A DNA stretch of 64,000 nt, from assembly GCA_003116975.1 (NCBI GenBank), contig BGKB01000023.1, positions 62,001 to 126,000 of the forward strand, in the 5' to 3' direction. Positions 618 to 53,490 of the stretch are shown one piece after another. The stretch is from Aurantiochytrium sp. KH105 (lineage: Eukaryota > Sar > Bigyra > Thraustochytrida > Thraustochytriidae). The stretch's first letter is position 1; the number at the start of each line of letters is the position of its first letter. A program made the position numbers and the translations under genes. The notes below the pieces were generated by a model, which was given only the letters and a program-made list of their open reading frames with translations, was not told the DNA's origin and searched no databases.

Positions 618-2171
618 CTTGCTCTCGCTCTCCTGTCTGCTGCCTTCCTTCCTTCCTTCCTTCCTTTCCCTTCTTCCTCCCTGCGACTGCCGCACCCGCG
701 ACGGGGAAAGGACGCAGGTCCCAGACTTCTGCTCGCCGCCTCGCTCGCTGGCCGCTCGGCGCTGGCTCCCGCTCCTCGGCGCTCCTCGGCGTCCGCTCGC
801 TCGCTCGCTCGCTCGCGGCGTCGCTCTCCGCGCGCAGCCGCTCCTCCGCGGGCAGTACGTGCACGCCGCGGCGCTCTTCTTTCTTGCCTTCTTTCTCTCT
901 CTTTCTGCTCTGCTCGAGCGAGGGCCCGGCCTGAGAGGGAGGAAAGAGGAGAGGTCGGTCCGGACGCCTCTCGAAAAGGCCTGCTCGCCGCGCCTCTGTG
1001 CGTCGCTCGGACGCGCGCCTCCGCGCTCCGCGCCTGCCGCCCGCGCTCCGCGCGCGCGGGCCCGGGCTCGCGCGGCCTGGCTGTCTGGCTGTCGCGGCGC
1101 CTGGCTTCGTTCGGACTCGGCCTGTGCACGCCTCCGAGGCCGTCGATCCGATCCGATCCGATCCGATTCCGCCTGCGCGGCCTGCGCGGCGCGGCCTGCG
1201 CGGCCTGCGGCGGGCGCGCGAGCGGGCGGGCGCGCGAGCGTGCGTGCGCGCGGGCGGGGGACTCGCGCGCGAGTGGACTCGGGTCGACGCGGTTAGGGAT
1301 TTATTGGGCGATGGATTGATCTCGCGCGGCCAGGCTGTGAAGGAGCGAGCGAACTGTGGCGGGTTTACTGCACTTGCGCGCACACCTGCAAGTGGGCTAT
1401 GGGGCTTTTGCCGCACTTGCGAGCGGGCGAGCGAGAGGGGCGGCATTCTCGGGAAAGAGGGAGGAGGTGGGCCGAGGAAGAGGTACTGGCCGCCGCGCAA
1501 GTCGGGTATCCGCGGAAGATGCACTTGCGAGCGCCGGGTGCAAGTGGAGAATGCGGCGGCCCCACTCAGCGCCGAGCGGGCGGCCCGTGTGCGCACAGAA
1601 TCGCAGACTGGCCCCAAGAGGTAAGCATCAGGAACCTTCTCCTCGAGACGCGGAACCGAGTTGGAGGGGATAGGGAGGGACTCTAAGTTTTGTGTTTGTG
1701 CGACGTATGATACGTGGACGAGGAGAAAGAAGATGGAGGAGGAGGCGGAAACCCAGCTGCAGATGCGACGGACGACTACTACTGCAATGGGCGAAAAAGA
1801 GCAAAACGATCATCGTTTCAGGTGAAATTACGCATAGTACTACTACTACCACTACCACTGCCACGTGCTGGAGAGGTTGATCCCGAGGAAGGGGTGAGGA
1901 AGGTGGCAGATCGCTGCGTGTGCAAGCGATGACGACTGCGACTGTCTGTCGCAAAGCGTTCGCGAGGCAATCATACGGATTGCATGCACATGGACCCCAA
2001 AGAGGTTGGTAGAGCGTCAGATTTTGGCATCTTTTCGGGTGCATGCTGCCTGCCTGGAGACAAATTCTCCTGCAAACACGTCTGCCTGCCTCGCCGTCAA
2101 GACATGCACGGTCACCAGCCAGCAGCAAGCAAGAGCATCAAGAGTACGTCACCTTGGCTGGCCTCGGGGGT
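618..2171. other. Intergenic region with CG-rich repeats and GCAAGT elements
   Basis: This is the upstream region of the AGC kinase and the downstream region of the CFAP68-like gene. It holds a CCTT tract (about 643-667), a GCTC tract (about 794-815), a GATCC pentamer run (about 1144-1169) and a CG-dense block up to about 1280. The cluster of GCAAGT/ACTTGC elements at 1370-1560 is listed separately. Several long open frames exist on both strands, but their composition (Arg/Ala/Pro-rich) only reflects the GC-rich repeats. I see no gene. Confidence 0.6.
1370..1560. promoter_or_regulatory. Cluster of GCAAGT elements (putative promoter element)
   Basis: Five copies of CACTTGC, GCAAGTG or GCAAGTC lie within 190 bp. 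The best copies are GCAAGTGGAGAATGCGGCGG at 1540-1559, GCAAGTGGGCTATGGGGC at 1388-1405 and GCGCAAGTCGGGTATCCGCG at 1495-1514. The first differs at one of 20 bases from a site at 45222-45241 between two other genes. The third resembles sites at 49405-49424 and, inverted, 53338-53356. The similarity extends well beyond the 7-base core, so this is unlikely to be base-composition noise. The role as a transcription-factor or core-promoter element is inferred from position only. The cluster lies about 750-940 bp upstream of the AGC kinase start. Confidence 0.5.
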
Positions 2172-2777
2172 CTAGTATTCGATCGAAAGCCGATCGGAAC
2201 GAATATTGCTATAAGTCTGCGCCTGCACAAAAGCCTTTGTAAAGGCACGGTCCGAAGAAAATCGCTGCATGACAGGCTTCGCATCCAGAGTTGCCTGAGG
2301 ACGAAAGGGTTGCTGGCAGGCCACAGTGTAGGAAGTAGAATGGTGGGGATCTCGCTGCCGACGCTCGGCATTCATTTGCTTCTGTCGCGCAAGTCCAATC
2401 TCTCGGCGCCCCGATTTGTGGCTCGAAGACGATGGCGTAGGCGCAAAAGAAAGCTTGTGCGTCGTATGAAAGCGACCCTCGGAGCTCGGATTATGAACAT
2501 TGCCGTGCTCGCAGTGACCGAGCAGAAGCGTGCTCTCCAAGCCGCGCATAGATGGCTTCGATGTCTGAAGTTTGGCCTCATCCTCTGCGCTTCCCGAGCG
2601 TGTTCGCGAATCGGGATGAGCAAAGTGATGCTGTGCCTCGCTGATTGCGTCAAACTTTGGAGTAGACGTCAACGCCGCCATCTCGCTGCCCATCTTGTCC
2701 TCCACCCAATTGCCGCACAGCACATTTGCGCCAAAAGAATTCTTGTGGCCGCAAATGCCATACCCTGAGCCCGACAT
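2172..2777 (-). CDS. Putative CFAP68/C11orf1-like flagellar protein
   Basis: An open frame of 201 residues from the ATG at 2777 to a TAG at 2172. Residue composition is ordinary (His, Ser, mixed charge), unlike the repeat-driven frames nearby. The N-terminal part contains NSFGANVLCGNW followed by an acidic/basic residue pair. This resembles the NxYxNxxLxGNWxxER stretch I recall from the CFAP68 (C11orf1) family of doublet-microtubule inner proteins. A later segment, RFHTTHKLSF, resembles that family's FxTTYxxSY element. If right, the product sits inside the axonemal A- or B-tubule. The C-terminal half (basic, His/Gln-rich) is unassigned. The opposite strand is also open (about 2043-2768) but reads as a composition shadow. 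The family call rests on two short motifs recalled by eye, so it is tentative; that this is a gene is more likely than not. Confidence 0.45.
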   Translation of the reverse strand: MSGSGYGICGHKNSFGANVLCGNWVEDKMGSEMAALTSTPKFDAISEAQHHFAHPDSRTRSGSAEDEAKLQTSKPSMRGLESTLLLGHCEHGNVHNPSSEGRFHTTHKLSFAPTPSSSSHKSGRREIGLARQKQMNAERRQRDPHHSTSYTVACQQPFRPQATLDAKPVMQRFSSDRAFTKAFVQAQTYSNIRSDRLSIEY

Positions 2778-3440
2778 CTTGCCACCACAGCACAACAACG
2801 CTACGACTTGTCTGCCTCGCGACTACGTCGCACGCCTGCTTCTTCTAGAGACTCTCGCGCGCCGAGGCCACTTGGCACGATGTAGATGGCAAAGAAGCAG
2901 CCACCTTCAAGGCCGCAGACGACAGGCAGGTGCAACGAGAATTTGCTCACGGTCCGTCAACACATGCATGTATTCTCCCACCTTTTCTCGAACCTAAACA
3001 GACGGGTCCGTTTAACCTGCGTCGCAATTCGAGTCGCTAAAGGGAAATCGAGTGAATAGAAATGTCTTTGGTCTTGTCTTGTCTTGTCTCAATATGCGTG
3101 CGCCGCGCGTGCAAGATCGCATACAGACACGCCCCCATCCTCCTCCAAAATAAATAAAAAGACCTCGACCACGGAACGGATCACTCTACGGAACCAAAAC
3201 AGAACGTACTCGGAACTGGGATGACAGTGAATAAGAGGAGGCTTTTTTCTTTTTTCCCTTATAAACAGACTCCCAGGACCATCAACTCTGAAGTCTCGCA
3301 CGTCGAGTCTGGCGTGCCGCACTCGAGTACTCTTGACCCTCCGAGGTGGCAGGCAACTCATTGCGTTTGTCGAGACGAAGCACCGAACGACCCAGGCGCC
3401 TTGAGCAGGTCTCGTGGACTCAACCGGCCTTGCCATCACC
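2778..3440. promoter_or_regulatory. Divergent intergenic region with a TATA-like box
   Basis: This region separates the CFAP68-like gene (-) from the cyclic-nucleotide-binding kinase (+). A TATAAA at 3260-3265 follows a T-rich run and lies about 175 bp before the kinase ATG. That is a plausible core promoter with a moderate leader, though no transcript start can be seen. A short TCTTG repeat occurs near 3070-3090. No gene is supported. Confidence 0.35.
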
Positions 3441-6400
3441 ATGGGTGACGGCGACGACGGGACCCCAACTCGCAGAGCTCCTCCGGACCAGCAGCAACAC
3501 CAGGTACAGCAGGGCTTACCGCCGACCCGGCGACGACATCGAAAACAATGGGACTTTGGACGTAAGAAACTACACGAGCTCACCGACAAAGCCCGCGCAC
3601 GCGCACGCAGGCTTGCGAGCTCAGGATCCGTGAGCTCTGATAGCGCCCTCTCCGACCTGGGCACCACCAACCGACAAGGCAGCGGACGCGTCCTTATGGT
3701 ATCTCGTCAAGCTCTCGCTCGCTTCAACCCTTTTGGAAACCATGGCGACTATGAAGACGACGAAATCTTGACATCCTTTCTCGAACACAGCGCCCATAGC
3801 GACGAGTTGCGCCAGTTTCATGAAGTCATGTCCGCCGCAAGCATGCCGCTCCCTTCGCGAGGCAGGGGAACCTCTGTCGCAAAGTTAGCCAAGTCGAGGT
3901 CTCCATCGTCATCATCGCTTAACTCCGTATCGTCTCAACTGCCAAGTTCAAATAGCCAAAAGGACCTTCTCACTGCAGTGCTCACGGGCTCCAGCGCCTT
4001 TGCTTCCATCGAGGAAGGCTTTTGCCACGAGCTCTACAAGTCAGCGGTGGAGATCACCGTATCAAAAGGAGAGTCCGTATATCTGCAAGGCCAGACGGGG
4101 GCCCTCATGTTCGTGGTCATCTCTGGAAACTTGCAACTGCGTCGCAAGGTCCTCAACACCCCAGCAGCCCGGATCCTGCACAAGTGTGGCCCCGGGGATG
4201 TACTTTGCGAGGCAGCAATGCTGGAACCCCTCTTGCATCGGGAGAGCGCTGTTGTCATCTCTGATGAGGCTACTCTTTTGGCTCTACATCGCCTCGAGTA
4301 TCAGCTCGCTGCCTTGCGCTTTGCTGAAAACAACATCCACCAGGAAGATGATGCAGCGGATTTCTTGCGAAACATCTACCTGTTCCAGAACCTCTCGCCC
4401 GAGCCGAGAATGTACATCGTGTCAAAGGTCGTTTGGAAAACCTTTGCCGCGAATGAGGTCATCCTTGCCGAACACACAAGTGAGCCGGGTCTAATCATCA
4501 TTGACAATGGAGAGGCTGCCCTCGAAATCGAGTATCGAAAACGTGACAACGCTACCATGCAACTCGTGTGTACGAGGGAAGAAGTGCGATGTCTTCATCG
4601 CGGTGAGCTCTTTGCAGAAGCCGCCATAATCTCTGAAGAGCTAAGATCCGCGGATGTGGGCTACCGCATTTCTGCGCGTGAGCGGGGCGCTCGTGTTGGC
4701 ATTCTTACACACGAAGTTTTGGCAGAAGCTCTATCACTCTTGCATGCTGGCAAAAAGACAAAGCTGAAACAGGACCAGAGCATGCTCCAGGCGCTGCATA
4801 TTGGCCATGCACTTTCTCACCACCCGCTCTTTTCCGAGCGCACAAGCGTCGAGATTTTTGCGATTGCTGACCGAATGTCTGTGACTCGACTTTCTGCCGG
4901 CCAGGTTCTTCCAGGCACCGAGGGACTCTGGCTTATTCTGGACGGCGCCTTGACAGTTTTCCAACGGAGCGAACCCCTCGTCAGTCTCACGGCCGGCGAC
5001 TGTTTTGGCGACGCTTCTGCGCTCGTCGGCGACATCTCGGTCCGCAATTTTGGCTCTCGTTTCTTTGCCACCTCACCCACTCGAGTGGCGCGAGCGACTG
5101 GCGAAGTTATTTGCGCGCTAATCTCGCGCGAGATTCTAACAAAGCTAGGTATCGAATGCAGTGATCGCGCGAGCACAGGGCAGGGTGAGTTGCCTGGCGT
5201 ACCGGACAAAAACGTGCAGAGCGCCAACGAGGGACAGGAGCCGCAGAGTAGCGGAGCCGACAGCGGGTCAAAGTCACCTTTGAGGCAAACGCCAGTATCC
5301 AAAGCAACCCTAAGCTTGACACGGTTAGATCGCGGTGATCTGATCTTGCTTCGAAGACTTTTTACGGGACCCAGTTCCAAGCTTTACTATGCTCGTCACC
5401 AACCAAGCGATCGCGTCTTGGCCGTCAAAGAAGTGCTCGATCTCGGCGCTGTCAACCAGGGATCGTTCTCGTCTTCGTCTTCGTCCCTCTTCTCCGATCC
5501 AGAATGGCTGGCGCAAGCTGCAGACGAGCCGCGCGAGCTCGGTCACTCTGCTCATGTCGAAATTGCTTTGATGCTGCGTCTCGCTTCGACAAATACGGTG
5601 CCTCGAATTTTTGGAATCATGGCCGAGCCGCAGCGAGCGCTCGTCACAGTCGGCATGGACCCCATGATTGGCGGAGATCTTGCTGCCCTCATTGCCAGTC
5701 ATCCTCAGGGCTTACCGCTTGAAAGCTTCAAGTTCTATGCGGCTTGCCTCGTGAGCACGCTCAAGGTGCTTTTTGAGAATGGTATTCTGCATCGCGACAT
5801 CAAACCGGGTAATATTATGGTCGACGCAACGGGTTATTTACGCCTCATCGACTTTGGCATCTCCAAGGGCAATATGTGTGGCGAGACAGCTCGAACGAGC
5901 ACGCTTTGCGGAACTCCGAAATACATGGCACCGGAGATTGCGCGTTTGGTGCTTGGTCGTGGCATAAGCTACGGACTTGCAGTTGACTGGTGGGCTCTTG
6001 GCGTTACACTTTTCGAGCTGGCCTGCGGCTTTAATCCATTTGAGTTCACGACAGCGCCCTCGACTGCACATTCTCCACGCGCGGAGAGCAACGCCCCAGC
6101 TGCGCAAGAAGAGGAGCAGAACGCCGCGACAAATGTCCACATCGTTCTGCATCGCGTTGTCAGTTTTGCCGAGGCTTTTGCGAAGAAATCACTTCCTGGG
6201 TCGTCTCCAACGGGGGCCAAAGATTCGGAAAGCGTGGCTCAGGACGAGCTTGCGGGCTTGCCAGGGGGGTTAGCCAACTTATCCACGCTTGCTCCAGAGT
6301 GGAACAACGCCATAGATCTGATTCTACGCTTATTGCAACCTTCATTGTACACGCGCTTGGGTGTTGGCGTTGCGGGTCCTCGTGGCGCAGTAGAGCATCC

Positions 6401-7559: not shown

Positions 7560-8010
7560 CGCACGCTGCTGCGGCTCCGATGTAGTAGTATGTCTTCTGC
7601 AGAGTCCGGCCTGCGATCTGAGTTTTCCCTGACTGACATGAGTCCGAGCTTTAGACCTCGCTCGCTCGGAGAAAAGGAACACGCGAATGTAGCCATTGTT
7701 GTAGACATGTATTCTGCGCAACCCATATTCGCTCGTCGTGCTGGGCCCGAGCGATCGTAACGTCTCTGACCACTTGCATAGCCAGAGTTGAGCGAGCAGG
7801 CGCCCGCCTTCTTCTTTCTGCACCTGAGCTTTGCAGGAGAAAAACAGAGTGGTAACATCTCGTCTGTCTCGGCGCTGCAGTCGCTGGACTGGCCCACGCG
7901 TGCAGAAGTCTTGCAAAGGAAAGCGGAACGACGACGAGCCGCAAAGGTCAAAGCAGACGTCAAAAAAACCTCGCTTTACCAGGGTCAGACGGATAGAGCA
8001 GAGCACAACC
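7560..8010. other. Divergent intergenic region
   Basis: It holds both promoters of the CoA-binding gene (-) and the ENO4-like gene (+). No TATA box, repeat or further gene is evident. The short open frames crossing it have no recognisable content. Confidence 0.5.
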
Positions 8011-9660
8011 ATGGCGAACGCAACGAAGATTAAGTCCGAAAAAAAGATGGTGGAGGCGTACCTCGCTGAGCATGAACTGGAGCGCACGGTGAATGAGGTT
8101 CTCAACGAGTGCCTTCGTCAGCGCCCAGAAGACCCTTATGCCCAAATCGCGGGCCTCTTTAAAGAAAAGTCAAAGGCAGGCCAGGGCGTGCTTGAGGTGC
8201 ACGGCCGAATTGTCTTCGACTGCAGTGGCGACGAGGCATTCGAGGTGGAAATCGTCACGGACAATGGTCGATTTAGGACGCAAGTGAGTAGTGTGCGAAT
8301 CCCAACCGCGGCAGACCGCCTCGTCGGCGACAACTTTGTCAGTACCATCAATGGACCCATTGCCAAAGCACTGGTGGGTTGCGATCCCGCTGATCTGGAG
8401 GCTGCAGATCAGGCACTTCTCGCTCTCGACACATCGGAGCGAAAAGTTAAGATTGGGTGCAACACTTTGTATGCTGCGTCGGTGGCCATGTGCAAAGCAA
8501 GTGCCATTGACGAGCCAGTCTTTCGTCAAATCGCAGGTCTTATGAAACGTAGCGAGTTCGCCATGCCTGTTCCCTGGTTCACCGCAATCGAACGGGCTCA
8601 TGATGCGATCGGCATCCTGCCAACAGGTGCAAGTTCCTTGGAAAGTGCGATTCGATTAGCACGTGAAGCAATTGCTGCACTTGCAGCCCTTCCTGAAGCT
8701 ACGAGCACTGAATCGAGCTTCGCAGACCTTTTGCAGGCAGTTGTTGCGTGTGTCTCGGAACGAGGATGGGCCGAAAAGCTCAAGCTCAGCGTCACAGCGC
8801 GCGAGATGATTCTCGATGACCTTCCGGATGATGCAGCACCCATAAAAGATGGGGCTGACGCAAGCGAAAATGGCGAGAGCAAGGAAGACTCTTCAGAAGG
8901 CAAAGACGCTGCCGAGGGCGAAAACGAAGAACCTGGTGAGGGAGAAGGTCACGTTGCACCAAGCGCAAGTCCACCACGCTTGGACGTGTCCTTCAGTCCA
9001 CCGGAAGATGCGCGAACCGCAGTTCTCGAAGCGGCAAAAGAACTGCTTGGGAATGAAGAAAGTGGGCTCCTCCTCGCGGTTGCAGAAAACATCTTTCCTC
9101 CGCAAAACAAATCACAAATGGCTAATTTCGTCGAAGAATATGGCGAGCAAGTCTTGTTGCTCAACCACGTCGCGGAAGACGGCATTGCTGCCCATACTGA
9201 GGATGGTGATGGCGCAGAGACTAAAGACGAGGACGCTTCGCCCGTCGAAGGCAAGGAAGCCAGCGGAGAAGGCAGCGACGGCGAGGCAGACGGAGAGGAT
9301 GCCGAGGAAGAAGGCAAGACATCTTCCGGAAGCCTGGACAGCGGCCTACCTCCGTGCAATGGCGAGCGCATCTACATTGGCACGCCGTTCAGTGACGTCT
9401 TTACGGTGACGGACCTTGCACAGGTTTGCGAGGCCAACGCAAGCATGGGCCAGGCGATGGTGGTTGTGTGGGAGCCAACGCACGACACTTATGATGAGTT
9501 TGCTGCTGATTTCTGTGTCGGCGCAGGCATTGGTCTCGTGCAGTTTGGCAACTTCGCCTCGCCCAACACTGCTGCGAGACTGAACCAGTTATTACGCATC
9601 CAGCATGCTCTTGGCAGCTCTGCGTTCTACGCAGGTTCGCGCTTCCGGTCTCCCTTTTAG
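8011..9660 (+). CDS. ENO4: ENO4-like pseudo-enolase with docking/dimerisation domain
   Basis: 549 residues from the ATG at 8011 (context ACAACCATGG). Residues about 12-52 look like an RIIa/Dpy-30-type docking and dimerisation domain (YLAEHELERTVNEVL, then RPEDPYAQIAGLF). An enolase N-domain follows (VHGRIVFDCSGDEAFEVEI, then SERKVKIGCNTLYAASVAMCKA). The barrel is interrupted by two acidic linkers (about 285-320 and 395-440). The C-terminus is enolase-like (LNQLLRIQHALGSSAFYAG). Catalytic positions look lost: the SHRSGETED segment reads WEPTHDTYDE, the catalytic Lys of IKTG reads Q in VQFG, and the RSER substrate loop reads SPNT. Enolase activity is therefore unlikely. ENO4 proteins carry a docking domain of this sort and belong to sperm and cilia, so a structural or scaffold role in the flagellum is inferred. 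Confidence 0.88.
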   Translation: MANATKIKSEKKMVEAYLAEHELERTVNEVLNECLRQRPEDPYAQIAGLFKEKSKAGQGVLEVHGRIVFDCSGDEAFEVEIVTDNGRFRTQVSSVRIPTAADRLVGDNFVSTINGPIAKALVGCDPADLEAADQALLALDTSERKVKIGCNTLYAASVAMCKASAIDEPVFRQIAGLMKRSEFAMPVPWFTAIERAHDAIGILPTGASSLESAIRLAREAIAALAALPEATSTESSFADLLQAVVACVSERGWAEKLKLSVTAREMILDDLPDDAAPIKDGADASENGESKEDSSEGKDAAEGENEEPGEGEGHVAPSASPPRLDVSFSPPEDARTAVLEAAKELLGNEESGLLLAVAENIFPPQNKSQMANFVEEYGEQVLLLNHVAEDGIAAHTEDGDGAETKDEDASPVEGKEASGEGSDGEADGEDAEEEGKTSSGSLDSGLPPCNGERIYIGTPFSDVFTVTDLAQVCEANASMGQAMVVVWEPTHDTYDEFAADFCVGAGIGLVQFGNFASPNTAARLNQLLRIQHALGSSAFYAGSRFRSPF

Positions 9661-26809: not shown

Positions 26810-29800
26810 CTAAAGGATGGCGCATGCCCTAGAGGGCGCAGGGCCTGATTCAGTATTCGCCTCGTCGATGGCCATGGGCACGACGCTCTCATTTGGCTCT
26901 GTTATTACGCTCTGCGTGGGGTTCGAGCTTCCTTCGTACTCGTCACCGGACCGATTAAGAATGACGTACTTTCTCACCGCCTCGATCTTGCTCATCATTG
27001 CACTCGAGGTGTAGCGCTCCATACTCGAATGTGTAGCGTCCAGTGCGCCATCATTGGGCAGCATCATGCCCTCAGCTGTCTGAGGTGACGATGCGCTCGG
27101 CCCAAATCCGGTACCATCCGATGCAGCTTGCGAAACAGCCAGTTCCTGGCCATCGGAAAAGTAGCTGTCGTCGCCAACAAGCTCCTTCATTTCCATGAGG
27201 GCAGGTAGCAGCTTGGGCGCGCCCAAATTAAGATCAGGAATTGCTTCAATGGCGGCATACGCCTCTGGAAGCGCGCCAATCGCAATGTTCGTGCGGAAAG
27301 AGTACATCATGAACTTGAGCGCCATGGTATCGTTGTGCGCGCGACGATAATGATGGGAGAGTAATACAAAGTACGGGCGCAAGTCCTCGTCGTACGTTTT
27401 TTGGTAATACTGCGCCACAGACAGATGCAGCATTTTCAGGTTCCGCGAAGTATTGAGATTGTAACAGATATCCTTGGCAAGACGGGTGCGAAAGGCGTAC
27501 ATTAGCTCGCCGTAGGGGCCTTCCGTCGACTCGAGCCAGTCGTTGGCTTCGAGGTCCTCAATAACTTCGGCAAGAATGTGATCGCCCTTGCGACTAATGC
27601 TCCGCGGAACAATGTCGCGCAAACATGCGACAGGAAAGCAGAAACCAATCACGGCAGCGGTCTTGAGCAGCGCGCGGTGCGTGTCTGGCAATTGGTCAAA
27701 TTTTGCTTGTACAGCCCGCTCGAGAACCACATTAATCGCAGTATTTTCCACCAACTCGGTTTCTTCCGAAAGTGCCAAACTTTTAGTAATTTCCTCGCAG
27801 CGGCCTGGGTTGCCCTGGCCCTGATCAATGATGAAATCAATGGCGTTAGATTTGAGGTTCGAATCCCCCGCTGCAGTCTTGATGACTCTCAAAGACTCAT
27901 CTCTTCCAAGTGGCATCAGATTCAAGTTCGTCACCTTTACGACATCGCACAGATTCTTGTACCACCCTTGGGCCTGTGTGATTGGAGCCGTCGTCATTGC
28001 GACCTGTCGCGTAAAGACAAGGAGAAGCTGGCCTGGGGCACTCTGTAAGAGCTCGGAGATGGCCTTGCCACTTAGACTGTCCGCATAGTGCACGTCGTCG
28101 ACGAAAATGACAAGCTTGTGACCCTCCGATTGATAGCCTCGCAAAAGTACCCGGAGAATCCTTCCAAGGCATCGCATCACCATGGCTTGGCTTGGAAAGA
28201 CGTCAAGCGACTTGTGATGCGTCAGCGAGGACCGCCGCGGGGTGCCTGGTTCGGAAGACCTCGAGGACTCCGTGCTCCATTGTGTGCCTAGAACCTGAGA
28301 GAGAACGGGCTGCGCAATACGATCGATGCGACGCTGACGAGCAATTGAGCGAGTTATTGAGGTCTTGCTTTGCTCGCGTCCAATCGAGGCCGCCCCGGAC
28401 GCCGATCTCTCGATATTCGCAAGACTCTCCTCATGCCCGCTTGGAAGATGGGCGCCGAGATCATCCGTACTATCTCCCGTGTGAGATGACCCTTCGGAAA
28501 CTCCCATGATAAATCCAGAGTCCTGTTTCAAAGACCCTTTGCTTTGACTTTGCCCAATCGAAGCATCTGTCCCTTGCCCAGCCAGGAGGTCCCTTGGGGA
28601 CCCCAAGAGGTTAACTGTCGCATAATCGTCGCTGCCCGTGCTCCCGCGTCTTCGCCGCTGGCCTTGTCTAGGCGAGGCAGACGCCTTTTGAACAAGCTCT
28701 GTCTTGGACGAGGATTTCAAGTGCGGCGCAGCAGAAAGAAACATGCTCGTTGTCGCGCGAAGGAAGCCGCGCTTTGGAGCAATGTCGTTACTCAATCTGC
28801 GCTTTGGCAACTCGGAGGGGCCCAAGGTAACCGAGCCAGCTCTGCGGAAAAGAGATACTGTAGGAGCCCGCTGCATCATTGACCGTCCGCGATTGATCTT
28901 TGGCATGCTTGCTTCGTTTCCCTTAGAGCCTTGCGACGGGGTCTTTTCGACCGGAAACCCAATACTCGAGTTTAGCGCTTGCTCGTACTCGTCAACACGC
29001 AGCATAAGGTCATTGAACCGTCTTTTTCTGCGCTCGTCGAGGTCCTCTTTGGAAAGTTTGGAAGTGCCGAGATGCTTCACAATATCAACATCAGCTCTGG
29101 GGTCCAATCCTAGCAATTGCCAGAAAATCTGCTGGAAAACAGCGTATGGCGTCGATTGTGATGCAGAAAACACCTTGCAAGATATGGACTGAAAGCCGCG
29201 TTTTTCGAGAAAGGCCTTGAGGTGGATGGCCACGAGTGTTTTTCCCATTCCTTGTTCGCCGCAAATGGTGACAACCTGAGGCTTGCCCGGCACAAGGCTC
29301 GATGCGACTTGCGCCACCTTTTCCTTTACGTCGCGGCGACCGACAAGCTCTGCCAGCGCGCTCGAGTCGTCGAAACTAAGCTCGCGGCGCGCAGCATCAT
29401 CGTCACGGTTCTCGCAAAGGTAGGTTTGCACGAGGTTTTCGTAACCTTTCAGGCGCACTGGCTCAAGAGCCGTGAACTCAACCTGGGGTTCTGTCTTGGT
29501 CTCCGTGTAAGTTTCTTCGTTACAAATGAGCATGGAGAATCGTTCTTCTTGGAGCGCTCGCTTTCGACTCAAACTCATGAGCCTCGCTGCCAAATTAACA
29601 TCGCGGCCTACCATAGCGTACTCGCGGCGGTCCGTGGACCCCACGGCCCCGCAAAAGGCTGCGCCCGTTGAAAGGCCAATGTAACTTCGAATCTTTCGAG
29701 ATTCCAAAATACGGCCCATGTTGAGACCACAGGCAAGAGCTCGTGTGGGATCATCACGATGCGTGTGACCCGCCACGCCAAAGCACGCAATAAAGACACA

Positions 29801-31534
29801 GCCTTTGTCATCAACAAGAAACTGGCGCAAGAGACCGTTGTAGCTGAAGAGCACCTGCTGTAAGTCTCGCAATGTTTCGTGAAAGAGTTTTGCGAGCGTT
29901 TTGCCATCTGAGTCTGGGTCGTAAATGTCCACCGAGAAACCATCGAGCATAATGAAGAGCACGCAGATACGTTTGCGGTACTCGTTCAAATAGCGCTCCC
30001 CTGCGCGCAAAACCTCGATGGCGGGGCCCGGAATAAAGCAGCGGAGCTTGTCAACAAAGCTCAGCGCGGACGTGTAAACGGCTGTCAAAGCGTTATCTTG
30101 CGCCTCGGCAGATGTTGAAGTGACTTTGAATTTGGTTGACATCTGCGACAATATCATGTTTCCACCGACGAGTGAGATGTCTGCTTTGGACTCCAGTTCC
30201 TCTGGCATGTTGACTCCTATGAGCTTAACGAGCCCACGCTTTCTGTGAAAGCTACCAATCATATTTGGAGAGTCTTCACGCTCTTCCACAATTGTTTCAA
30301 CGTTGCAAAACTCTTTGACGGGCGCATAGGTTTCCTCGGTCACAACAACTTCCTTGCTGCTCGCGTGACCCTCGGCGTCGCCCATTCGCACGATGGCCTC
30401 GCCAATGACCAGCCAGTTCCAGGAGCCATCGGTGCCTCCTATGATTGTGAAATGTGTCTTTCCTGACGCAATGCCAATGTGCAGCGTGAGCTGCGGTCTC
30501 GTGAGACTCGCGAGCTCGAGCCCACACTGAAAGACGCGCAGAGTTTGGTACACTAGGTCAGATGGTCTAGTAACCCAGGTGATGATGAGCGCATCGCCAG
30601 CAAAGGCAACAATATCACCGCCATATGCCTTGACAATTTTGATGAGCGCGCCGAGAAAGTCGCTGATGATTTCAGAAAGCTCGTCAACTCCCTCGGGTCC
30701 TCGTGAGCAAAGATTTTCGCTCAGCGCGGTGAAACCAGAAATGTCTGCCAGCATGACGAGCGCGTGGGAAGTTTGGCTCGTAAGAGTTACATTACCATTC
30801 TCCTCGAGAAAAGTCAGAAGCTGCCTCGGCACAAAGGAAGAAAGCTTTGGGATATCCCTGGATGCAAGCGATCGAAGTCGAGCGCCTAACTCTGCTGCAC
30901 GAGGAGAGTCCATCATCTGGCCTTTTGAAAATTTGTGAGAGCTGAGAAGACCCGATGACCGTGAGGAGGAGAGTACTGCACTGGACATTGCTCTCGGCGA
31001 AGAAACAGTAACCGATCCAGTACGCGGACCTCCAATGGTACGGTGCGTACCCATTTGATGCTTATGAGATGAAGCTGACCCTCCACTTTCTCTAATACGC
31101 GCACTTAATACTTCGGATGTTGACCTGGCCATTAAGGAACCGACAGAGAATCGTGGAAGAGACAACTTGGTTGACTTGCGAGCGCTGCTTGAGATGAAGG
31201 CATCTTCATCTTCCGCAGGATCGTAGGAGTTTGGGTCCTTGGAGGCGCTCATGGAGAAAAACCGGTCGCCATCATCTGTACTGTCGTCCTGACATTCTTT
31301 TTCACTTTTGTTGTCATGGTACATGGCCCCGAGCCCGAGCTCAGGGACGCTAATGGGGGAGGAGTCAGCGTGCGCTTGTTTCCCCTCGAGAGAATCTCGA
31401 ATGCTATCACTGATTTTTCTCTCTTCATGATCATCATTGTCATCGTTATCGTCCTTCTTTTCCTCGTTGCTTGCAAAGCGTTCTCGTTGTGCGATGCTCT
31501 CGCAGTCATCGTCTTGCCCCTTTGACTCAGCCAT
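26810..31534 (-). CDS. ADCY10: Soluble-type adenylyl cyclase (ADCY10-like), with C-terminal CaaX box
   Basis: 1574 residues, close to mammalian ADCY10 (about 1610). The start is the ATG at 31534 (GCCATGG); the frame is open further upstream but has no earlier ATG. An acidic, Ser-rich N-terminus precedes two class III cyclase domains. C1 (about 255-440) supplies the metal Asp residues: Asp264 in LADISGF and Asp314 in AFAGDALI. C2 (about 520-700) supplies Asn647 and Arg651 in GRDVNLAAR. That split is the sAC catalytic arrangement. A P-loop NTPase follows (GEQGMGKT near 758), then a long Ser-rich insertion and an AAA/helical region with a Walker B-like LVIFVDDVHYADS. The product converts ATP to cAMP; family members respond to bicarbonate and calcium. 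The protein ends in CAIL, a CaaX box of the CaaL type, which suggests geranylgeranylation and membrane attachment. It is head-to-head with a G-alpha gene. Confidence 0.93.
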   Translation of the reverse strand: MAESKGQDDDCESIAQRERFASNEEKKDDNDDNDDHEERKISDSIRDSLEGKQAHADSSPISVPELGLGAMYHDNKSEKECQDDSTDDGDRFFSMSASKDPNSYDPAEDEDAFISSSARKSTKLSLPRFSVGSLMARSTSEVLSARIRESGGSASSHKHQMGTHRTIGGPRTGSVTVSSPRAMSSAVLSSSRSSGLLSSHKFSKGQMMDSPRAAELGARLRSLASRDIPKLSSFVPRQLLTFLEENGNVTLTSQTSHALVMLADISGFTALSENLCSRGPEGVDELSEIISDFLGALIKIVKAYGGDIVAFAGDALIITWVTRPSDLVYQTLRVFQCGLELASLTRPQLTLHIGIASGKTHFTIIGGTDGSWNWLVIGEAIVRMGDAEGHASSKEVVVTEETYAPVKEFCNVETIVEEREDSPNMIGSFHRKRGLVKLIGVNMPEELESKADISLVGGNMILSQMSTKFKVTSTSAEAQDNALTAVYTSALSFVDKLRCFIPGPAIEVLRAGERYLNEYRKRICVLFIMLDGFSVDIYDPDSDGKTLAKLFHETLRDLQQVLFSYNGLLRQFLVDDKGCVFIACFGVAGHTHRDDPTRALACGLNMGRILESRKIRSYIGLSTGAAFCGAVGSTDRREYAMVGRDVNLAARLMSLSRKRALQEERFSMLICNEETYTETKTEPQVEFTALEPVRLKGYENLVQTYLCENRDDDAARRELSFDDSSALAELVGRRDVKEKVAQVASSLVPGKPQVVTICGEQGMGKTLVAIHLKAFLEKRGFQSISCKVFSASQSTPYAVFQQIFWQLLGLDPRADVDIVKHLGTSKLSKEDLDERRKRRFNDLMLRVDEYEQALNSSIGFPVEKTPSQGSKGNEASMPKINRGRSMMQRAPTVSLFRRAGSVTLGPSELPKRRLSNDIAPKRGFLRATTSMFLSAAPHLKSSSKTELVQKASASPRQGQRRRRGSTGSDDYATVNLLGSPRDLLAGQGTDASIGQSQSKGSLKQDSGFIMGVSEGSSHTGDSTDDLGAHLPSGHEESLANIERSASGAASIGREQSKTSITRSIARQRRIDRIAQPVLSQVLGTQWSTESSRSSEPGTPRRSSLTHHKSLDVFPSQAMVMRCLGRILRVLLRGYQSEGHKLVIFVDDVHYADSLSGKAISELLQSAPGQLLLVFTRQVAMTTAPITQAQGWYKNLCDVVKVTNLNLMPLGRDESLRVIKTAAGDSNLKSNAIDFIIDQGQGNPGRCEEITKSLALSEETELVENTAINVVLERAVQAKFDQLPDTHRALLKTAAVIGFCFPVACLRDIVPRSISRKGDHILAEVIEDLEANDWLESTEGPYGELMYAFRTRLAKDICYNLNTSRNLKMLHLSVAQYYQKTYDEDLRPYFVLLSHHYRRAHNDTMALKFMMYSFRTNIAIGALPEAYAAIEAIPDLNLGAPKLLPALMEMKELVGDDSYFSDGQELAVSQAASDGTGFGPSASSPQTAEGMMLPNDGALDATHSSMERYTSSAMMSKIEAVRKYVILNRSGDEYEGSSNPTQSVITEPNESVVPMAIDEANTESGPAPSRACAIL

Positions 31535-31784
31535 GGCCAATCGCTCGCCTTGGTTCAATTGTGCGATGCAGCAGACGAACGCAAGAGCACTCCCTCTCGC
31601 TGTGACCGCGAGCGCGCGAGCGAGAGAACCTCGTCGCGCGGTCGAGTCCACACCCGGCCACGATTTGCCGACGACTTCGAGCGCTCGTTCCACTGTGCAC
31701 TACAGCACTGGTCAGCGGCGGCTCCACTTCAAGCCTTGCGATGGCTTCGCGGTGGAAAGAACACACATACACACCGACAAGAGA

Positions 31785-31822
<38 letters not shown>

Positions 31823-44871: not shown

Positions 44872-44875
44872 TCGA

Positions 44876-44900
44876 TCATCATCACCAGCATCATCATCAA

Positions 44901-44952
<52 letters not shown>
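44876..44952. repeat. ATC trinucleotide microsatellite
   Basis: About 24 ATC units with a few interruptions (CACCAG, CAAC). It ends 5 bp before the SET gene's ATG on the other strand. Read in the SET direction it is GAT/ATG repeats, so it brings a run of upstream ATG codons. Confidence 0.95.
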
Positions 44953-45221: not shown

Positions 45222-45300
45222 GCAAGTGGACAATGCGGCGGCGCAAGTGGGGCAAAGGCGGTTTGGGCCAGTGGGCGCGGCGAGGCAAGTGCGAGGATAG
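45222..45300. promoter_or_regulatory. GCAAGTG elements between SET and CCT2 genes
   Basis: GCAAGTGGACAATGCGGCGG at 45222-45241 matches the 1540-1559 element at 19 of 20 bases. A second GCAAGTGG follows at 45243-45250 and a GGCAAGTGCG near 45285. They lie about 310-390 bp upstream of CCT2 and 350-430 bp upstream of the SET gene. Confidence 0.5.

Positions 45301-47549: not shown

Positions 47550-47585
<36 letters not shown>
47327..47585 (+). pseudogene. Decayed tandem copy of the CCT2 3' end
   Basis: Starting at 47327 the sequence repeats the last 57 codons of CCT2 (from Met472, base 47025) plus its 3' untranslated region. Matching stretches include CTCAACATG-CGGAAGGCA, GAGCATGT, TGCGCGTCGACT and, in the UTR, TTGCATTTGC and TTTACAGATAACACACAC. 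The copy has a short deletion, an in-frame TAG at 47398 and many substitutions, so it encodes nothing. It ends in a longer CA tract (about 47553-47585) than the parent (about 47279-47290). The parent-to-copy offset is 273-302 bp. A further, weaker unit seems to begin at about 47587. Confidence 0.85.
47553..47585. repeat. CA dinucleotide microsatellite
   Basis: About 16 CA units, expanded from the six-unit CA tract at the corresponding place of the parental CCT2 3' region. Confidence 0.95.
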
Positions 47586-47586
<1 letters not shown>

Positions 47587-49276: not shown

Positions 49277-49852
49277 TCTCGCGGCTCGCGCGCAGCGGCC
49301 GGAAGGAAAGCAGCGCTGTTCCTCCTCTCCGCCAGAAATGAATCCCCTCGAGAAGGCGCTCTGCGCGGCGCTCTTCGCCGTGGCGTCGGGGCTGCGCTGC
49401 TCCTGCGCAAGTCAAGTATTCCGCATTCTTCATTCACCTCGCTGAGTTCCTATTTTGTTTTAGTTTATTGTCCTCTCTCACGCACTCACTGCGTAGTCAA
49501 CCAATAGTATGCCAAACCACTGGCAAGACAGCAGTCTGTCTGCCCAGAACTCGCGCAGAACCGCAATTGCTGTGCGCGAGCGCGAGTTGCCGAGGACGAG
49601 CGGGTGGCCTGGGTTGGATTGGGCTGGGTCGAGAGACTTTCGCGAGTCGAGACGAGTCAAACAACAAAGCAGGCGCGGCTCGATTTGTTGACTCTTGAAA
49701 AGGGGGCCGTCCTGTCCACGCGCAAGATTTCGAAGCCACAGTCAAACGTCAAGGCATAGAATTTAGTGTTTGTAGACCTGACTGTGCTACGTCTACTCCA
49801 TCATTCACGTTACCGGGGAGGATAGTGTTGACCGAAAGGCTACTCTAATACT
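49277..49852. promoter_or_regulatory. Divergent intergenic region with GCAAGTC element
   Basis: GCGCAAGTCAAGTATTCCGC at 49405-49424 resembles the 1495-1514 site (one-base indel plus two changes). It is 129 bp upstream of the WW-RDD gene. The rest, up to the GNAT start, shows no repeat, TATA box or gene. Confidence 0.4.
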
Positions 49853-50428
49853 ATGGGTGTCGTTGAGTGCAACACGAACGGCGAGAAACCCTCGCGTAAA
49901 CTTGTCGAGGCCAACGCGGCTGTCTTTGATAATGGGACCTTGGACCTGGATGCCTGGCATGAACGCATGCAGGCGGGAAGAAGCTGGGCTTTGACCAATG
50001 ATGCAGGATTTCTCGCTGCGCACGAGCGCATTGAAGACGATGGCACGTGTGTGATCAACATCTGGATCATGGGAGTCCGCAAGGAGGCGCGGGGCTCAGG
50101 AGCCTTTCGCGAGCTGGTGGGAGCTCTTTTGGCGGAGATTGCCCGTACTCGTGGTCTCTGGCAGTTCGCAAATACGCAACTTACCATGACAACGAGGCCC
50201 GAAAAGTTTGCGAAAATGTTTGCTATTCTTTGCGCGGCCGGCGCGCGCCGCTGCGATACGCCAGAGGACGAACATGCGGGCAAAGCTCGCTTTCGTGTCC
50301 CAGTCTTGGTTGTCGCTCTCGCGTTATGGCGTCGGCAGGCTGCGGCAGCTTGTACTTTCGGAGCTCTTGCGGCAGTCGCTCTAGCGTTGGTCCTCGGGCG
50401 CGCTCGTAGACAGGCAAGCTTGGAGTAG
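49853..50428 (+). CDS. GNAT-like acetyltransferase with C-terminal membrane anchor
   Basis: 191 residues from the ATG at 49853. The central part has a GNAT core: a beta-strand pair VINIWIMGVRKEARGSGAF followed by a helix RELVGALLAEIAR. The RGSG at 80-83 stands for the acetyl-CoA pyrophosphate loop RxxGxG/A in reduced form. A later NTQLTMTTRPEKFAKMFAILCAAG resembles GNAT strand 5 and helix 4. The protein ends with one hydrophobic span (about 163-182) and a short basic tail RARRQASLE, the layout of a tail-anchored protein facing the cytosol. No substrate can be named. It is convergent with Hv1, 232 bp away. Confidence 0.6.
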   Translation: MGVVECNTNGEKPSRKLVEANAAVFDNGTLDLDAWHERMQAGRSWALTNDAGFLAAHERIEDDGTCVINIWIMGVRKEARGSGAFRELVGALLAEIARTRGLWQFANTQLTMTTRPEKFAKMFAILCAAGARRCDTPEDEHAGKARFRVPVLVVALALWRRQAAAACTFGALAAVALALVLGRARRQASLE

Positions 50429-50660
50429 AATTATGCAAAAGAGATCCTTTACCAGTCCTGAGCTTTTCTTTTTTTGCTCTTTTGTTTTCGTTCGCCGGTA
50501 CCCACTCAACAGCACATCACATCGCACACATTAAGAGCGCGATGATCGAAAGTAATGGCACAATACGACTCTTTGACTCAACGACAGACTCTTTTGCGTC
50601 TTGCGTCTTGCTCTTTCGCATGAATGACTTTGCAAAAGTATAAATACACTCCAGCAGTCT

Positions 50661-51566
50661 TTAAGTTTGCGCCAGCGCACCATAGGAACCGCTCGTGTCT
50701 CTCACCGAAGTTGACTGCGAATCTCGCGAGGTTGACGCGTCTTCCTCCTGGAACGGCGCGGCAGTGTCGAAGGGATCGGCCTGACTGAGCGTCTCATCAG
50801 CCTTGAAGGCATCAGGAGGGCGCCCCCCGAGAGAAATAATGTGGTCGCGGAGGCTTTGGTTTTCTCGAATGAGCTCCTTGTGTTCGTGTCGCAGTTTTTT
50901 CATTTTGTTATGATCGACCTCGTGCACGTCGGTAAAGATGCCGTGCCCGACACGAAGAAGACGCCAAAGTCTAACAAAAATTAGCAGGCCTCCAGCCTCC
51001 TGCGCAAGCTCGGTGTGCAGCACGGTTTCGAGGACGAGAGCAACCGTGACCACGACAAAGTCGAAAATATAAAGCGCATTTCTGAAGAAGAGACGATGAA
51101 TGGAAGCGAGCAAGACTGCAAGCTCGAGCTCGAAAAGGATGAGGATGGTCACGGATATCCAAAAGAGGGCCTCGTGGGCGCCGTGGACGCCGTGCGGCTG
51201 ATGCGCGCACGCGGCTGCGCACTGCTCGGACCCATCGCTGTGCGAGGCCTCGGGGATTTCGGCAAGCAGACGGTGCGCCGTATCTTGCGTTGAAGCCTCG
51301 ACATCGCTGGCGTTGATGGCCACGCATTGTTCGATGATGACCGAGCAAGGCGGAAAGTAGGCTGTGAGGATGAGCTCCACGATGAGGACGAGGACGTCAA
51401 GCGCCAGGAGTGCCGCCAAGAAAGATTGAACTCCATGCGAATGGACAAATTTGAGCGTGCGATAATTCCACGAATCCTTGCCAAACTTTGCCTTGACCTT
51501 TTTCCTCTCCTCCTCATACGCGAGGAAGAAGGCCTTGGTGGGCGCCCAGTGCACCTGACGGCCCAT
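50661..51566 (-). CDS. HVCN1: Voltage-gated proton channel Hv1
   Basis: 301 residues from the ATG at 51566; the frame extends upstream only through non-ATG codons. It is a stand-alone voltage-sensor domain that conducts H+ outward on depolarisation. S1 (about 47-69) carries the selectivity Asp57 in LALDVLVLIVELIL. S2 (about 134-156) contains acidic residues in ILFELELAV. S3 (about 165-184) has Asp169. S4 (about 194-211) has the hallmark RLWRLLR (Arg199, Arg202, Arg205). A cytosolic coiled coil follows (about 217-246, HEHKELIRENQSLRDHI) for dimerisation. The S1-S2 loop is unusually long (about 70-132) and rich in Cys and His, which could bind zinc, the known Hv1 inhibitor. The Ser/Thr-rich tail after 250 may be phosphorylated. 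Confidence 0.95.
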   Translation of the reverse strand: MGRQVHWAPTKAFFLAYEEERKKVKAKFGKDSWNYRTLKFVHSHGVQSFLAALLALDVLVLIVELILTAYFPPCSVIIEQCVAINASDVEASTQDTAHRLLAEIPEASHSDGSEQCAAACAHQPHGVHGAHEALFWISVTILILFELELAVLLASIHRLFFRNALYIFDFVVVTVALVLETVLHTELAQEAGGLLIFVRLWRLLRVGHGIFTDVHEVDHNKMKKLRHEHKELIRENQSLRDHIISLGGRPPDAFKADETLSQADPFDTAAPFQEEDASTSRDSQSTSVRDTSGSYGALAQT

Positions 51567-51683
51567 TTCGTCCTCCCTCGCTTTCTCTGCGCTTTTCTTC
51601 TTCTTCCCTTCTTTGTCGAGCAGACTGCAGAGCAAGGGGAAAGGGAGATTGGCCTTGCGGAGCAATTCCTTCCGCGGTCTATC

Positions 51684-51745
51684 TCTGCTCTGCTCTGCTC
51701 TGCTCGGCTCGGCTCGGCTCTGCTTTGCTCCACTCCGCTCCGCTC
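51684..51745. repeat. GCTCT/GCTCG pentamer repeat
   Basis: About twelve degenerate pentamers, 120-180 bp upstream of the Hv1 start. A similar pentamer array, in the other orientation, lies upstream of CCT2 near 45385-45425. Confidence 0.8.
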
Positions 51746-53145
51746 GCGCGCTCGACCGCGGCGCCCGGCCAACGCAACGGTGAAGCTCAAAAGAGGTTTC
51801 TCAAAGTTCCTGCACAACCACACACGCGAATGGCCCCGGGTCCGGTCTCTCCAAAAAAAAATTGTCGCAGGGTGCGCGTGATAGTACTCACTTGTAAAGG
51901 TGTCCCCGGGTGGAAGGTGTGCGAAAAGCACGCGCTGGCTGTAACTGTTACTGACAAGTGATGTCACTTTTTACAAGAAGGCGCCGCGTGACAGAGGTCG
52001 ATTCACGACCGGCACGGCAGGCGGCTGCAGGCTGAGCTGTGGCTGCGCGCACGGCTGCAGCGGGCTGCGCTGATCGTCATGAAGACGACCGCCGCAGGCC
52101 ACTGCCAGCCTCTGCTTCAGGTCTGTGTTTGTGTGTGAGTGGGTGCCGGTGTTGCCAAGCACCCACCGACCGTGACGACGCACCGACCGTGCCGCCTTTC
52201 TCGCGACGGCGTCGCATCGATGCGCTGACAAAGCGCTGACATCGTCTCCTCCTCTTCTTCTTCTTCTTCTTCTTCTTCGTCTTCGTCTTCATCTTGTTCA
52301 AGTTCTTCGCCGAGTTCTTCTTCGCCATCGCTTGTTGTCTTGATCACATTCCTGGAACCATCCTGGGGTTAACGAATGGTCGAAGCCGCCACAAGACTGA
52401 ATGAAGCCAGCCGAACCGAGACCGCAATCGACAGCGACAGCGCCCGTGCAGAGAGCTGCAGCTGCAGCAGCTGTTGCTGCAGCTAGCCAGCTTGACGATC
52501 GATCCGTGCCGAGGCTCTATCTTGAAAGCCAGGGCTGGCTGCTGCTGATGAAACAGTCAATCAAACACAAGCGCATTCCGCACGATGCGTGCATCTCTCT
52601 GCGCTCACTCGCTCGCAGCTGTGCCTCCTGGCTGCTGCTGGCTGAGCCCATGTTTGGCTGCGCGCCTCCGACTCGCTGACGCTCGCATCGATCTCGAGCC
52701 CGCTGTCCTCGTCTTGCCGCTGCTGCTCGTTTTCCTGCCTGGCTGCTCTTCTCCAAGTCCTTTTTTTCTTTCTTTCCTTCTCTCTTATCCACTCCATTGC
52801 CAGTGGTCCACCTTGAAGGGCCTGCTTGTCTTGGCTTGGCTTGGCTTCGCTCGGCTTGGCTCGGCTCGTTCGCCTTACGGGACCTGGGTCGACTCGACGC
52901 GACTCAAGACGCGCGCTGCGACGGGCGCCGAGATCGATCGATCGACTGCGATTGCCAGGCGATTGCCAGTCGATCGATCGACCGATCAGCCCGTCATTCT
53001 TGGCGTCCATGAGACCTCGCAGCCGGTGCACGTAGAACGCGGCGCGGACTGGAATGGCACGAAGGGGCAGTTTGTGCGTGCAGTGGTTGGTTGGTCATTC
53101 GTGCGCGGGCGTCCGGTCGGCGGGCGCAAGCGCGCGCAAGCAAGC

Positions 53146-53490
53146 AAGTGCGTTATAGCGCCGCCAAGTGGACTATCGGCGGCACGCACACGGACACACA
53201 CACACATTCGCACGCGCCAATAGTAAAAATAAGCAACGAGGCAGCCGGCCGGAAGAAGGCGCTGGACCGGACCGTGTGCAGAAGAGGACCGACTCGCTGG
53301 CCGGCACTTGCAGCCGGTCCGCGGCAAGTGGGTAAAGCGCGGATTCCGACTTGCGCGCGGGGATAGCGCGCTTGCGCTGCGGGCGTGCGTGGGGGCCGGG
53401 GGCAGGCAGGGCCGGTGCGACAGTGGCCATGGTGGGCGCCGCGATAGCGCAGTGTGGAGGGGCGGATAGCGGACTTGCGCAAGTGGATAG
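53146..53490. promoter_or_regulatory. Cluster of GCAAGT elements and GATAGCG motifs
   Basis: This is the densest group of the element, with about eight cores in 345 bp. Examples are CCAAGTGGACTATCGGCGG (53164-53182), CGGCAAGTGGGTAAAGCG (about 53322-53339) and the inverted site at 53338-53356 matching the 1495-1514 form. A palindromic ACTTGCGCAAGT occurs near 53475. A second short motif, GGATAGCG or TATAGCG, recurs four times among them. The cluster lies 1.1-1.5 kb upstream of the PARP start and 1.6-1.9 kb upstream of Hv1. Confidence 0.5.

What the first reader, a model, noticed from the sequence alone, without database searches (positions are those of the whole stretch)
1370..53490. A shared promoter element (GCAAGT + ATxCGGCGG) recurs upstream of unrelated genes
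Near-identical 20-mers lie in separate intergenic regions: GCAAGTGGAGAATGCGGCGG (1540-1559) and GCAAGTGGACAATGCGGCGG (45222-45241) differ at one base. CCAAGTGGACTATCGGCGG (53164-53182) and GCAAGTGGGCTATGGGGC (1388-1405) are relatives. A second form, GCGCAAGTCGGGTATCCGCG (1495-1514), matches sites at 49405-49424 and, inverted, 53338-53356. They cluster (5, 3, 1 and about 8 cores) upstream of the AGC kinase, CCT2/SET, WW-RDD and Hv1/PARP genes. The similarity beyond the core is what makes it more than composition bias. The known E-box family (CANNTG) only partly overlaps the core CAAGTG.
Basis: partly seen in the sequence, partly recalled or inferred. Interest (0 to 1): 0.75.

Follow-up and report, generated by a model that had tools for sequence, protein, structure and literature searches.

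The report
Promoter elements on a 21.5-bp grid
In an unnamed protist genome, hundreds of places, mostly just in front of genes where inspected, carry runs of a short DNA word (GCAAGT plus an AT patch) spaced two DNA turns apart in either orientation, which looks like the binding array of an undescribed multi-unit gene-control protein.

Summary

The unit is a half-site, C-GCAAGT-G-S-G-S-N-A-T; the GC-rich tail is only 'C or G'. Half-sites sit on a lattice. Same-strand neighbours are mostly 20-22 bp apart, facing pairs offset by about 31, back-to-back pairs by about 12. All three equal one step of about 21.5 bp (two helical turns), whichever way a site points. Pairs versus reversed control: 1418 vs 12, 237 vs 11, 333 vs 10.

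Five contigs extrapolate to roughly 780 clusters per haploid genome. Of 15 hits read, 13 lie 5' of a predicted start. Half-sites diverge less than flanks between haplotypes.

Best reading: a helically phased multi-site promoter element for an unidentified oligomeric DNA-binding protein, probably in a thraustochytrid. The factor, the transcription starts and the function are unproven; a housekeeping bias is only suggestive. My paper searches listed no description of it.

The parts
1365..1377 (-). half-site (GCAAGTGCAGTAA); back-to-back with 1388, offset 11
   Evidence: hexamer same in other haplotype
1388..1400 (+). half-site GCAAGTGGGCTAT; faces 1420, offset 32
1408..1420 (-). half-site (GCAAGTGCGGCAA)
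1497..1509 (+). half-site GCAAGTCGGGTAT; faces 1528, offset 31
   Evidence: 13-mer identical in other haplotype
1516..1528 (-). half-site (GCAAGTGCATCTT); back-to-back with 1540, offset 12
   Evidence: 13-mer identical in other haplotype
45222..45234 (+). half-site GCAAGTGGACAAT, about 390 bp before the predicted CCT start; direct offset 21 to 45243
45243..45255 (+). half-site GCAAGTGGGGCAA
45285..45297 (+). half-site GCAAGTGCGAGGA, direct offset 42 from 45243; the one hexamer of 23 changed in the other haplotype
49407..49419 (+). lone half-site GCAAGTCAAGTAT 5' of the WW-RDD gene, no lattice partner
   Evidence: 13-mer identical in other haplotype
53144..53156 (+). half-site GCAAGTGCGTTAT; direct offset 20 to 53164
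53164..53176 (+). variant half-site CCAAGTGGACTAT
53299..53311 (-). half-site (GCAAGTGCCGGCC), no AT patch; back-to-back with 53324, offset 13
53324..53336 (+). half-site GCAAGTGGGTAAA; faces 53354, offset 30
53466..53478 (-). half-site (GCAAGTCCGCTAT); direct offset 21 to 53499
53479..53491 (+). half-site GCAAGTGGATAGG abutting 53478 (offset 1, off the grid)
53487..53499 (-). half-site (GCAAGTCGCCTAT)

Best explanation
The sites are half-sites of a multi-site promoter element. Each is about 13 bp: GCAAGT, then three or four mostly G/C bases, then a short A/T patch around bases 11-13. Up to eight half-sites are set on a grid of about 21.5 bp, two helical turns, so all bound subunits face one side of the DNA. 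A site may point either way because the centre of the unit (near the T of GCAAGT) stays on the grid. I infer a sequence-specific protein with a flexible or symmetric oligomer interface that binds cooperatively along the array, probably keeping the promoter open and recruiting the transcription machinery at several hundred genes, perhaps mainly housekeeping ones. Shown: the half-site consensus, the lattice, its genome-wide excess, the 5'-of-gene position in 13 of 15 loci read, and lower divergence between haplotypes. Inferred: a bound protein, cooperativity, activation. Suggestive only: the housekeeping bias.
For: Genome-wide pair counts against backwards controls: direct 1418 vs 12, facing 237 vs 11, back-to-back 333 vs 10. 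Of listed places, 64 of 100 direct offsets are 20-22 and 24 of 100 are 41-44; 42 of 50 facing are 30-32; 30 of 50 back-to-back are 11-13. 59 lattice members not matching the selection pattern keep the profile C-GCAAGT-G-S-G-S-N-A-T, whereas 266 non-lattice GCAAGT words do not. 13 of 15 hit loci are 5' of a predicted start. 22 of 23 hexamers are intact between haplotypes vs 16.4 +/- 2.2 for random hexamers, P 0.004; 13-mers differ at 2.7% vs 10.3% in flanks. Half-sites point towards the gene 35 to 14 in 11 arrays that I assigned to one gene. Neighbours include two CCT genes, RPL8-like, L7Ae family, proteasome, EF-Tu, V-ATPase, SKP1, Rpn13 and NuoG.
Against: The bare hexamer is not enriched upstream. 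2 of the 15 hit loci have no gene start downstream of the site: one in an ORF, one with none found. Two of the window's four groups are far from the predicted ATG (2.3-2.5 kb at 1388-1540; 1.1-1.5 kb at 53144-53479). 4 of 22 lattice sites in 264 kb are coding. The housekeeping test is weak: 4 of 61 genes vs 0.67 expected, P 0.005, but 0.07 with non-coding density and Fisher 0.30 against ion channels; and the window's own Ion_trans gene lies beside an array. No expression, binding or start-site data.
Confidence: 0.7

Rival explanations
1. The arrays are chromatin boundary, nucleosome-positioning or replication-origin elements that happen to sit in promoter regions; a bound protein organises chromatin rather than activating the neighbouring gene.
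For: Orientation freedom, many arrays between divergent genes, and clusters at about 20.6 per Mb.
Against: Half-sites point towards the apparent target gene 35 to 14; neighbours look functionally biased, though this is weak.
Confidence: 0.15
2. E-box sites for bHLH proteins: CAAGTG is a CANNTG word.
For: Base 7 is G in 73% of 85 lattice members, giving CAAGTG.
Against: Base 7 is C in 24%, which breaks CANNTG; specificity extends to base -1 and to the AT patch at 12-13. An E-box reading does not by itself predict the 21.5-bp grid.
Confidence: 0.08
3. A dispersed or tandem repeat family copied through the genome.
For: Some arrays look like near-tandem 21-bp units, e.g. L028 2559-2624.
Against: Among 22 array regions no alignment exceeds 102 bp; no tandem-repeat row covers the window arrays; spacers between half-sites are just C or G without a fixed base; facing and back-to-back arrangements keep the same grid.
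Confidence: 0.03
4. An RNA-level element (hairpin or protein site in the 5' leader).
For: Facing pairs are short inverted repeats, and sites lie within a kb of start codons.
Against: Same-strand pairs, which form no hairpin, outnumber facing pairs 1418 to 237; both strands are used; Rfam found nothing in the window.
Confidence: 0.04
5. Chance or GC-rich composition.
For: Upstream regions of this genome are rich in GCG/CGG words.
Against: The same patterns read backwards, with the same bases, give 2 vs 331, 12 vs 1418, 11 vs 237 and 10 vs 333.
Confidence: 0.01

Closest known systems
PhRiboBox of Phytophthora (PMC4696810, passages seen)
   Same: A short stramenopile promoter motif found in both orientations, enriched in ribosomal-protein and other growth genes.
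   Different: [quoted passage not shown] the passages I saw mention no phased arrays. Its letters were not in the text I saw, so sequence identity was not compared.
INR, FPR and DPEP core elements of Phytophthora infestans (PMC3599244, abstract seen)
   Same: Lineage-specific promoter motifs in a stramenopile.
   Different: Core elements near the transcription start; not described in the abstract as multi-copy on a two-turn grid.
E-box (CANNTG) / bHLH (recalled)
   Same: CAAGTG is one CANNTG word and most half-sites contain it.
   Different: 24% of lattice members have CAAGTC, and the preferences extend from base -1 to 13.
SV40 21-bp repeats / GC boxes and yeast tandem Rap1 sites of ribosomal-protein genes (recalled)
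   Same: Several activator sites spaced by whole helical turns in strong or housekeeping promoters.
   Different: Different sequences; here the grid is kept through inversion of single sites and is used at hundreds of unrelated places.
Heat-shock element (inverted nGAAn units on a fixed grid, bound by an HSF trimer; recalled)
   Same: Works alike: short units in alternating orientation on a fixed spacing read by an oligomer.
   Different: Unit length (about 21.5 vs 5 bp) and sequence differ; here direct repeats predominate over inverted ones.
Plant site II / TCP elements TGGGCY (recalled)
   Same: The variant GCAAGTGGGCTAT contains TGGGCT; site II pairs mark plant housekeeping promoters.
   Different: That stretch is not fixed: base 8 is G in 55% and base 9 G in 66% of lattice members.

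Membership tests
E-box / bHLH site | CANNTG core at every site | tested here: not met
   Base 7 is C in 24% of 85 lattice members and in 22% of 59 unselected ones.
E-box / bHLH site | Bound by a bHLH protein | not testable with these tools
   No binding data.
Plant site II / TCP element | Invariant TGGGCY | tested here: not met
   Bases 8-10 vary.
PhRiboBox | 12-nt consensus sequence | not tested
   Logo and matrix are in figures and supplements that I did not see.
PhRiboBox | Enriched in ribosomal-protein gene promoters | tested here: inconclusive
   Two ribosomal-protein family genes are among the neighbours; no genome-wide test of ribosomal-protein genes was possible.
Dispersed repeat or tandem satellite | Homology extending beyond the motif | tested here: not met
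   Longest alignment among 22 regions 102 bp; no tandem-repeat row over the window arrays.
Phased transcription-factor array (a kind, not a family) | Several similar sites at whole-turn spacing, in far excess of control | tested here: met
Phased transcription-factor array (a kind, not a family) | Protein occupancy and effect on transcription | not testable with these tools
   Needs experiment.
General core promoter element of the genome | Fixed distance to the transcription start, at most genes | tested here: inconclusive
   No start sites known; distances to predicted ATG vary from about 0.2 to 0.9 kb in the 13 loci; about 20.6 clusters per Mb on C1-C5, which is too few for most genes.

The most novel reading that the evidence does not exclude
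The grid is the footprint of an undescribed promoter-organising protein, specific to this protist lineage. It assembles along one face of the DNA in two-turn steps with subunits that can flip, and it serves as a main activator of growth and housekeeping genes in place of the factors known from yeast, animals and plants.
Probability: 0.3. Interest if true: 0.82.

Novelty: new variant of a known kind. Interest (0 to 1): 0.64.

Why it matters
My paper searches listed almost nothing on cis-regulatory sequence in thraustochytrids, which are used to make omega-3 oils. Here is a specific, testable code: a word, an AT patch and an orientation-independent two-turn grid at hundreds of places. It gives bait for purifying the factor, predicts that half-turn insertions abolish activity while whole-turn ones do not, and could explain shared control of growth genes in a lineage whose regulators are little known.

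Tried and rejected
De novo k-mer enrichment in 264 kb gave mainly low-complexity GC words, poly-C and CAAACA runs; it did not find the motif.

Rfam search of the window at gathering thresholds: no match.

The 20-mer as the unit was dropped once lattice members not selected on the tail showed no fixed CGGCGG. From that count I removed 20 members matching the selection pattern, 4 coding ones and 2 far from the array in L037.

I examined 101 of these 138; 0 of 101 had a consensus half-site and 61 of 101 were near-identical 21-bp repeats. This says nothing about relatives, since no eukaryote collection was open.

Housekeeping test by coordinates, genes on contigs C1-C39 only because the site list is cut there: CCT 3 of 5, proteasome 1 of 10, DEAD 1 of 12, Ion_trans 0 of 30, RRM 2 of 37. 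C11/C18 (CCT) and C12/C22 (RRM) are allelic, and the C23 CCT gene is the window's own. After dropping those hits, 4 of 61 vs 0.67 expected; allelic pairs without hits stayed in the denominators. DEAD scored 38 of 148 candidates and the Ion_trans list was cut, so both are incomplete. The window's own Ion_trans gene, which lies beside the 53-kb array, is not in that list.

Recalled leads not pursued: a YY1-like AATGGCGGC in one variant; a C/EBP-like TTGCGCAA where 53478 and 53479 abut.

Taxon is inferred: a PfaA-model match of 930 bits, below that model's cut-off of 1010, with matches nearly all in contig pairs, GC 58%, long open frames. PMC5924542 (passages) lists thraustochytrids of 39-43 Mb, one diploid of about 95 Mb, and 54-63% GC. 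No rRNA test was made.
Full report
Check of the observation. All seven strings are present at the stated places. The window is C23:62001-126000 of an unnamed 76.03-Mb, 367-contig genome. The exact 20-mer with one free base has 5 places genome-wide and none for the pattern read backwards. Their flanks show three independent loci plus two near-identical copies, which are the other haplotype: C175 matches the window at 85-96%, and C108 matches C44 at 90%. Relaxing the pattern to GCAAGTSRRNWATN{0,2}CSGC gives 331 places (158 plus, 173 minus) against 2 for the control. GCAAGTGGRNWATNCGGCGG with up to two mismatches gives 278 against 7. So the resemblance is real and genome-wide.

What the unit is. 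I fetched 16 stretches around listed hits on contigs C1-C16; 15 hold a hit and one was mis-centred. Listing NCAAGT words near each hit showed that copies come in ordered groups. Distances between GCAAGT words in L003 and those 16 loci: same strand 21 or 22 in 19 of 49 pairs within 60 bp (19-23 in 26) and 43-44 in 14; facing, 5'G to 5'G, 30-31 in 9 of 17; back-to-back 10-13 in 7 of 14. Genome-wide tests with free spacing gave the same answer: CGCAAGT N6-36 ACTTGCG 237 vs 11 control, CGCAAGT N8-38 CGCAAGT 740+678 vs 12, ACTTGCG N0-30 CGCAAGT 333 vs 10. Only the first places are listed. Among these, direct offsets are 20-22 in 64 of 100 and 41-44 in 24 of 100; facing offsets are 30-32 in 42 of 50 (28 at 31); back-to-back offsets are 11-13 in 30 of 50 (17 at 12). 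Several listed pairs come from one array, and both haplotypes are in the assembly, so they are not independent; the binomial values should be read with that in mind. Facing plus back-to-back is 31 + 12 = 43 = 2 x 21.5. If the centre of a half-site is near the T of GCAAGT, neighbours are about 21.5 bp apart whichever way they point.

In the window, neighbouring half-sites within one group show offsets 11, 32, 31 and 12 (1377-1540), 21 and 42 (45222-45285), and 20, 13, 30 and 21 (53144-53499). The exceptions are the abutting pair 53478/53479 and the larger gaps between sub-groups. The site at 49407 stands alone.

Consensus. Of 85 GCAAGT words with a lattice partner, base -1 is C in 69%, base 7 G or C in 97%, base 9 G in 66%, base 12 A in 66% and base 13 T in 65%; most other positions around are simply C or G. 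266 GCAAGT words without a partner show no such preferences. Leaving out members that match the selection pattern, coding ones and two distant ones leaves 59 with the same profile. The hexamer itself is fixed by the search, so its true tolerance is unmeasured; CCAAGT at 53164 shows that variants exist.

Position. A codon-usage gene model over 264 contiguous kb.6% coding; it is crude and ignores introns. Of 22 lattice sites there, 18 are non-coding and 4 coding. Strict single half-sites: 2 of 9 coding, backwards control 0 sites; loose ones: 9 of 26 coding, control 1 site. Of the 15 hit loci, 13 have the site 5' of a predicted start, about 0.2-0.9 kb away, several between divergent genes; L027 is inside an ORF, and L031 has no predicted start facing the site. 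In the window, 45222 is about 390 bp from the predicted CCT start, but 1388-1540 are 2.3-2.5 kb and 53144-53479 about 1.1-1.5 kb from the nearest predicted start, where first exons may be missing from my models. The bare hexamer is not enriched upstream. Half-sites point towards the gene 35 to 14 in 11 arrays that I assigned to one gene by eye; L009 and half of the window's first array do not, and the CCT array also has a divergent ORF.

Genes. In the window: a cNMP-binding protein kinase, CCT and WW-RDD genes, and Ion_trans and PARP genes. Elsewhere, 13 of 20 neighbouring proteins had a Pfam match: protein kinase, CK2-beta, Rpn13, EF-Tu, SKP1, RAB3GAP2, ankyrin protein, V-ATPase AC39, CCT, TYW1-like, ribosomal L2/L8, MIF4G, L7Ae family; 7 of 20 had none. 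Two more are a NuoG-like complex I subunit and a proteasome alpha-type subunit. At divergent pairs the target is unknown. The coordinate test gave sites within 2.5 kb upstream for CCT 3 of 5, proteasome 1 of 10, DEAD 1 of 12 and Ion_trans 0 of 30, and RRM 2 of 37, on contigs C1-C39 only. With allelic hits and the window's own gene dropped: 4 of 61 vs 0.67 expected, P 0.005, or 0.07 with density confined to non-coding DNA; Fisher against ion channels 0.30. I call the housekeeping bias suggestive.

Selection. In five haplotype comparisons 22 of 23 hexamers are intact, against 16.4 +/- 2.2 for random hexamers in the same regions (P 0.004); 13-bp half-sites differ at 2.7% of bases, flanks at 10.3%. 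The sample is small, and gaps in low-complexity flanks count as differences.

Not a repeat, not foreign. Twenty-two array regions of about 1 kb share alignments of at most 102 bp. Three-site direct arrays in viral and prokaryote contigs lacked a consensus half-site in 101 of 101 examined.

Abundance. 69 clusters on 3.36 Mb (C1-C5), 20.6 per Mb, about 780 per 38 Mb. This extrapolates from five contigs, includes chance pairs, and takes half the assembly as one haplotype.

Organism. A 930-bit match to the omega-3 PfaA model, below its cut-off of 1010, contig pairs for nearly every match, GC 58% in the window and long open frames point to a diploid assembly of a thraustochytrid. Passages of PMC5924542 give compatible sizes and GC. 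This is not proven.

Literature. Searches listed no title or abstract start that describes such an element in this group; searches had more matches than were listed. PMC10840233 (passages) reports ATAC-seq motifs in Schizochytrium assigned to classes such as BPC, MYB and OBP, without letters to compare. PMC4696810 (passages) describes the PhRiboBox; PMC3599244 (abstract) describes INR, FPR and DPEP. Supplements and most subscription papers were not available.

Mechanism. A two-turn grid with free orientation means that contact positions on one face of the DNA are kept while polarity is not. That is what a protein with a symmetric or flexible oligomer interface, binding cooperatively, should leave. 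The AT patch, most of a turn from the centre of GCAAGT, may be a minor-groove or bending contact. These steps are inference.

Noticed in passing
G000 contig pairs C23/C175, C44/C108, C72/C155, C27/C56, C11/C18 and others: The assembly holds two haplotypes as separate contigs, 85-96% identical in the stretches compared; useful for footprinting.
   Followed up: partly
C23 about 238.3-239.2 kb (L017 2321-3181): One array lies between divergent L7Ae-family ribosomal and proteasome alpha-type genes, a likely shared housekeeping promoter.
   Followed up: partly
window 7828-9660: An enolase-like ORF matches the N domain at residues 123-228 and the C domain only at 526-608, with about 300 residues unmatched between: insertion, intron read through, or a diverged copy.
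   Followed up: no
C27:303609-314666 and C56:295285-306354: Open frames of about 5700-5830 residues with several ketosynthase-like matches, present in both haplotypes.
   Followed up: no
window 44875-44952: 26 copies of ATC directly before the predicted start of the minus-strand ORF that faces away from the CCT gene.
   Followed up: no
window 26810-31699: A minus-strand gene joins a nucleotide-cyclase domain to an AAA ATPase domain.
   Followed up: no
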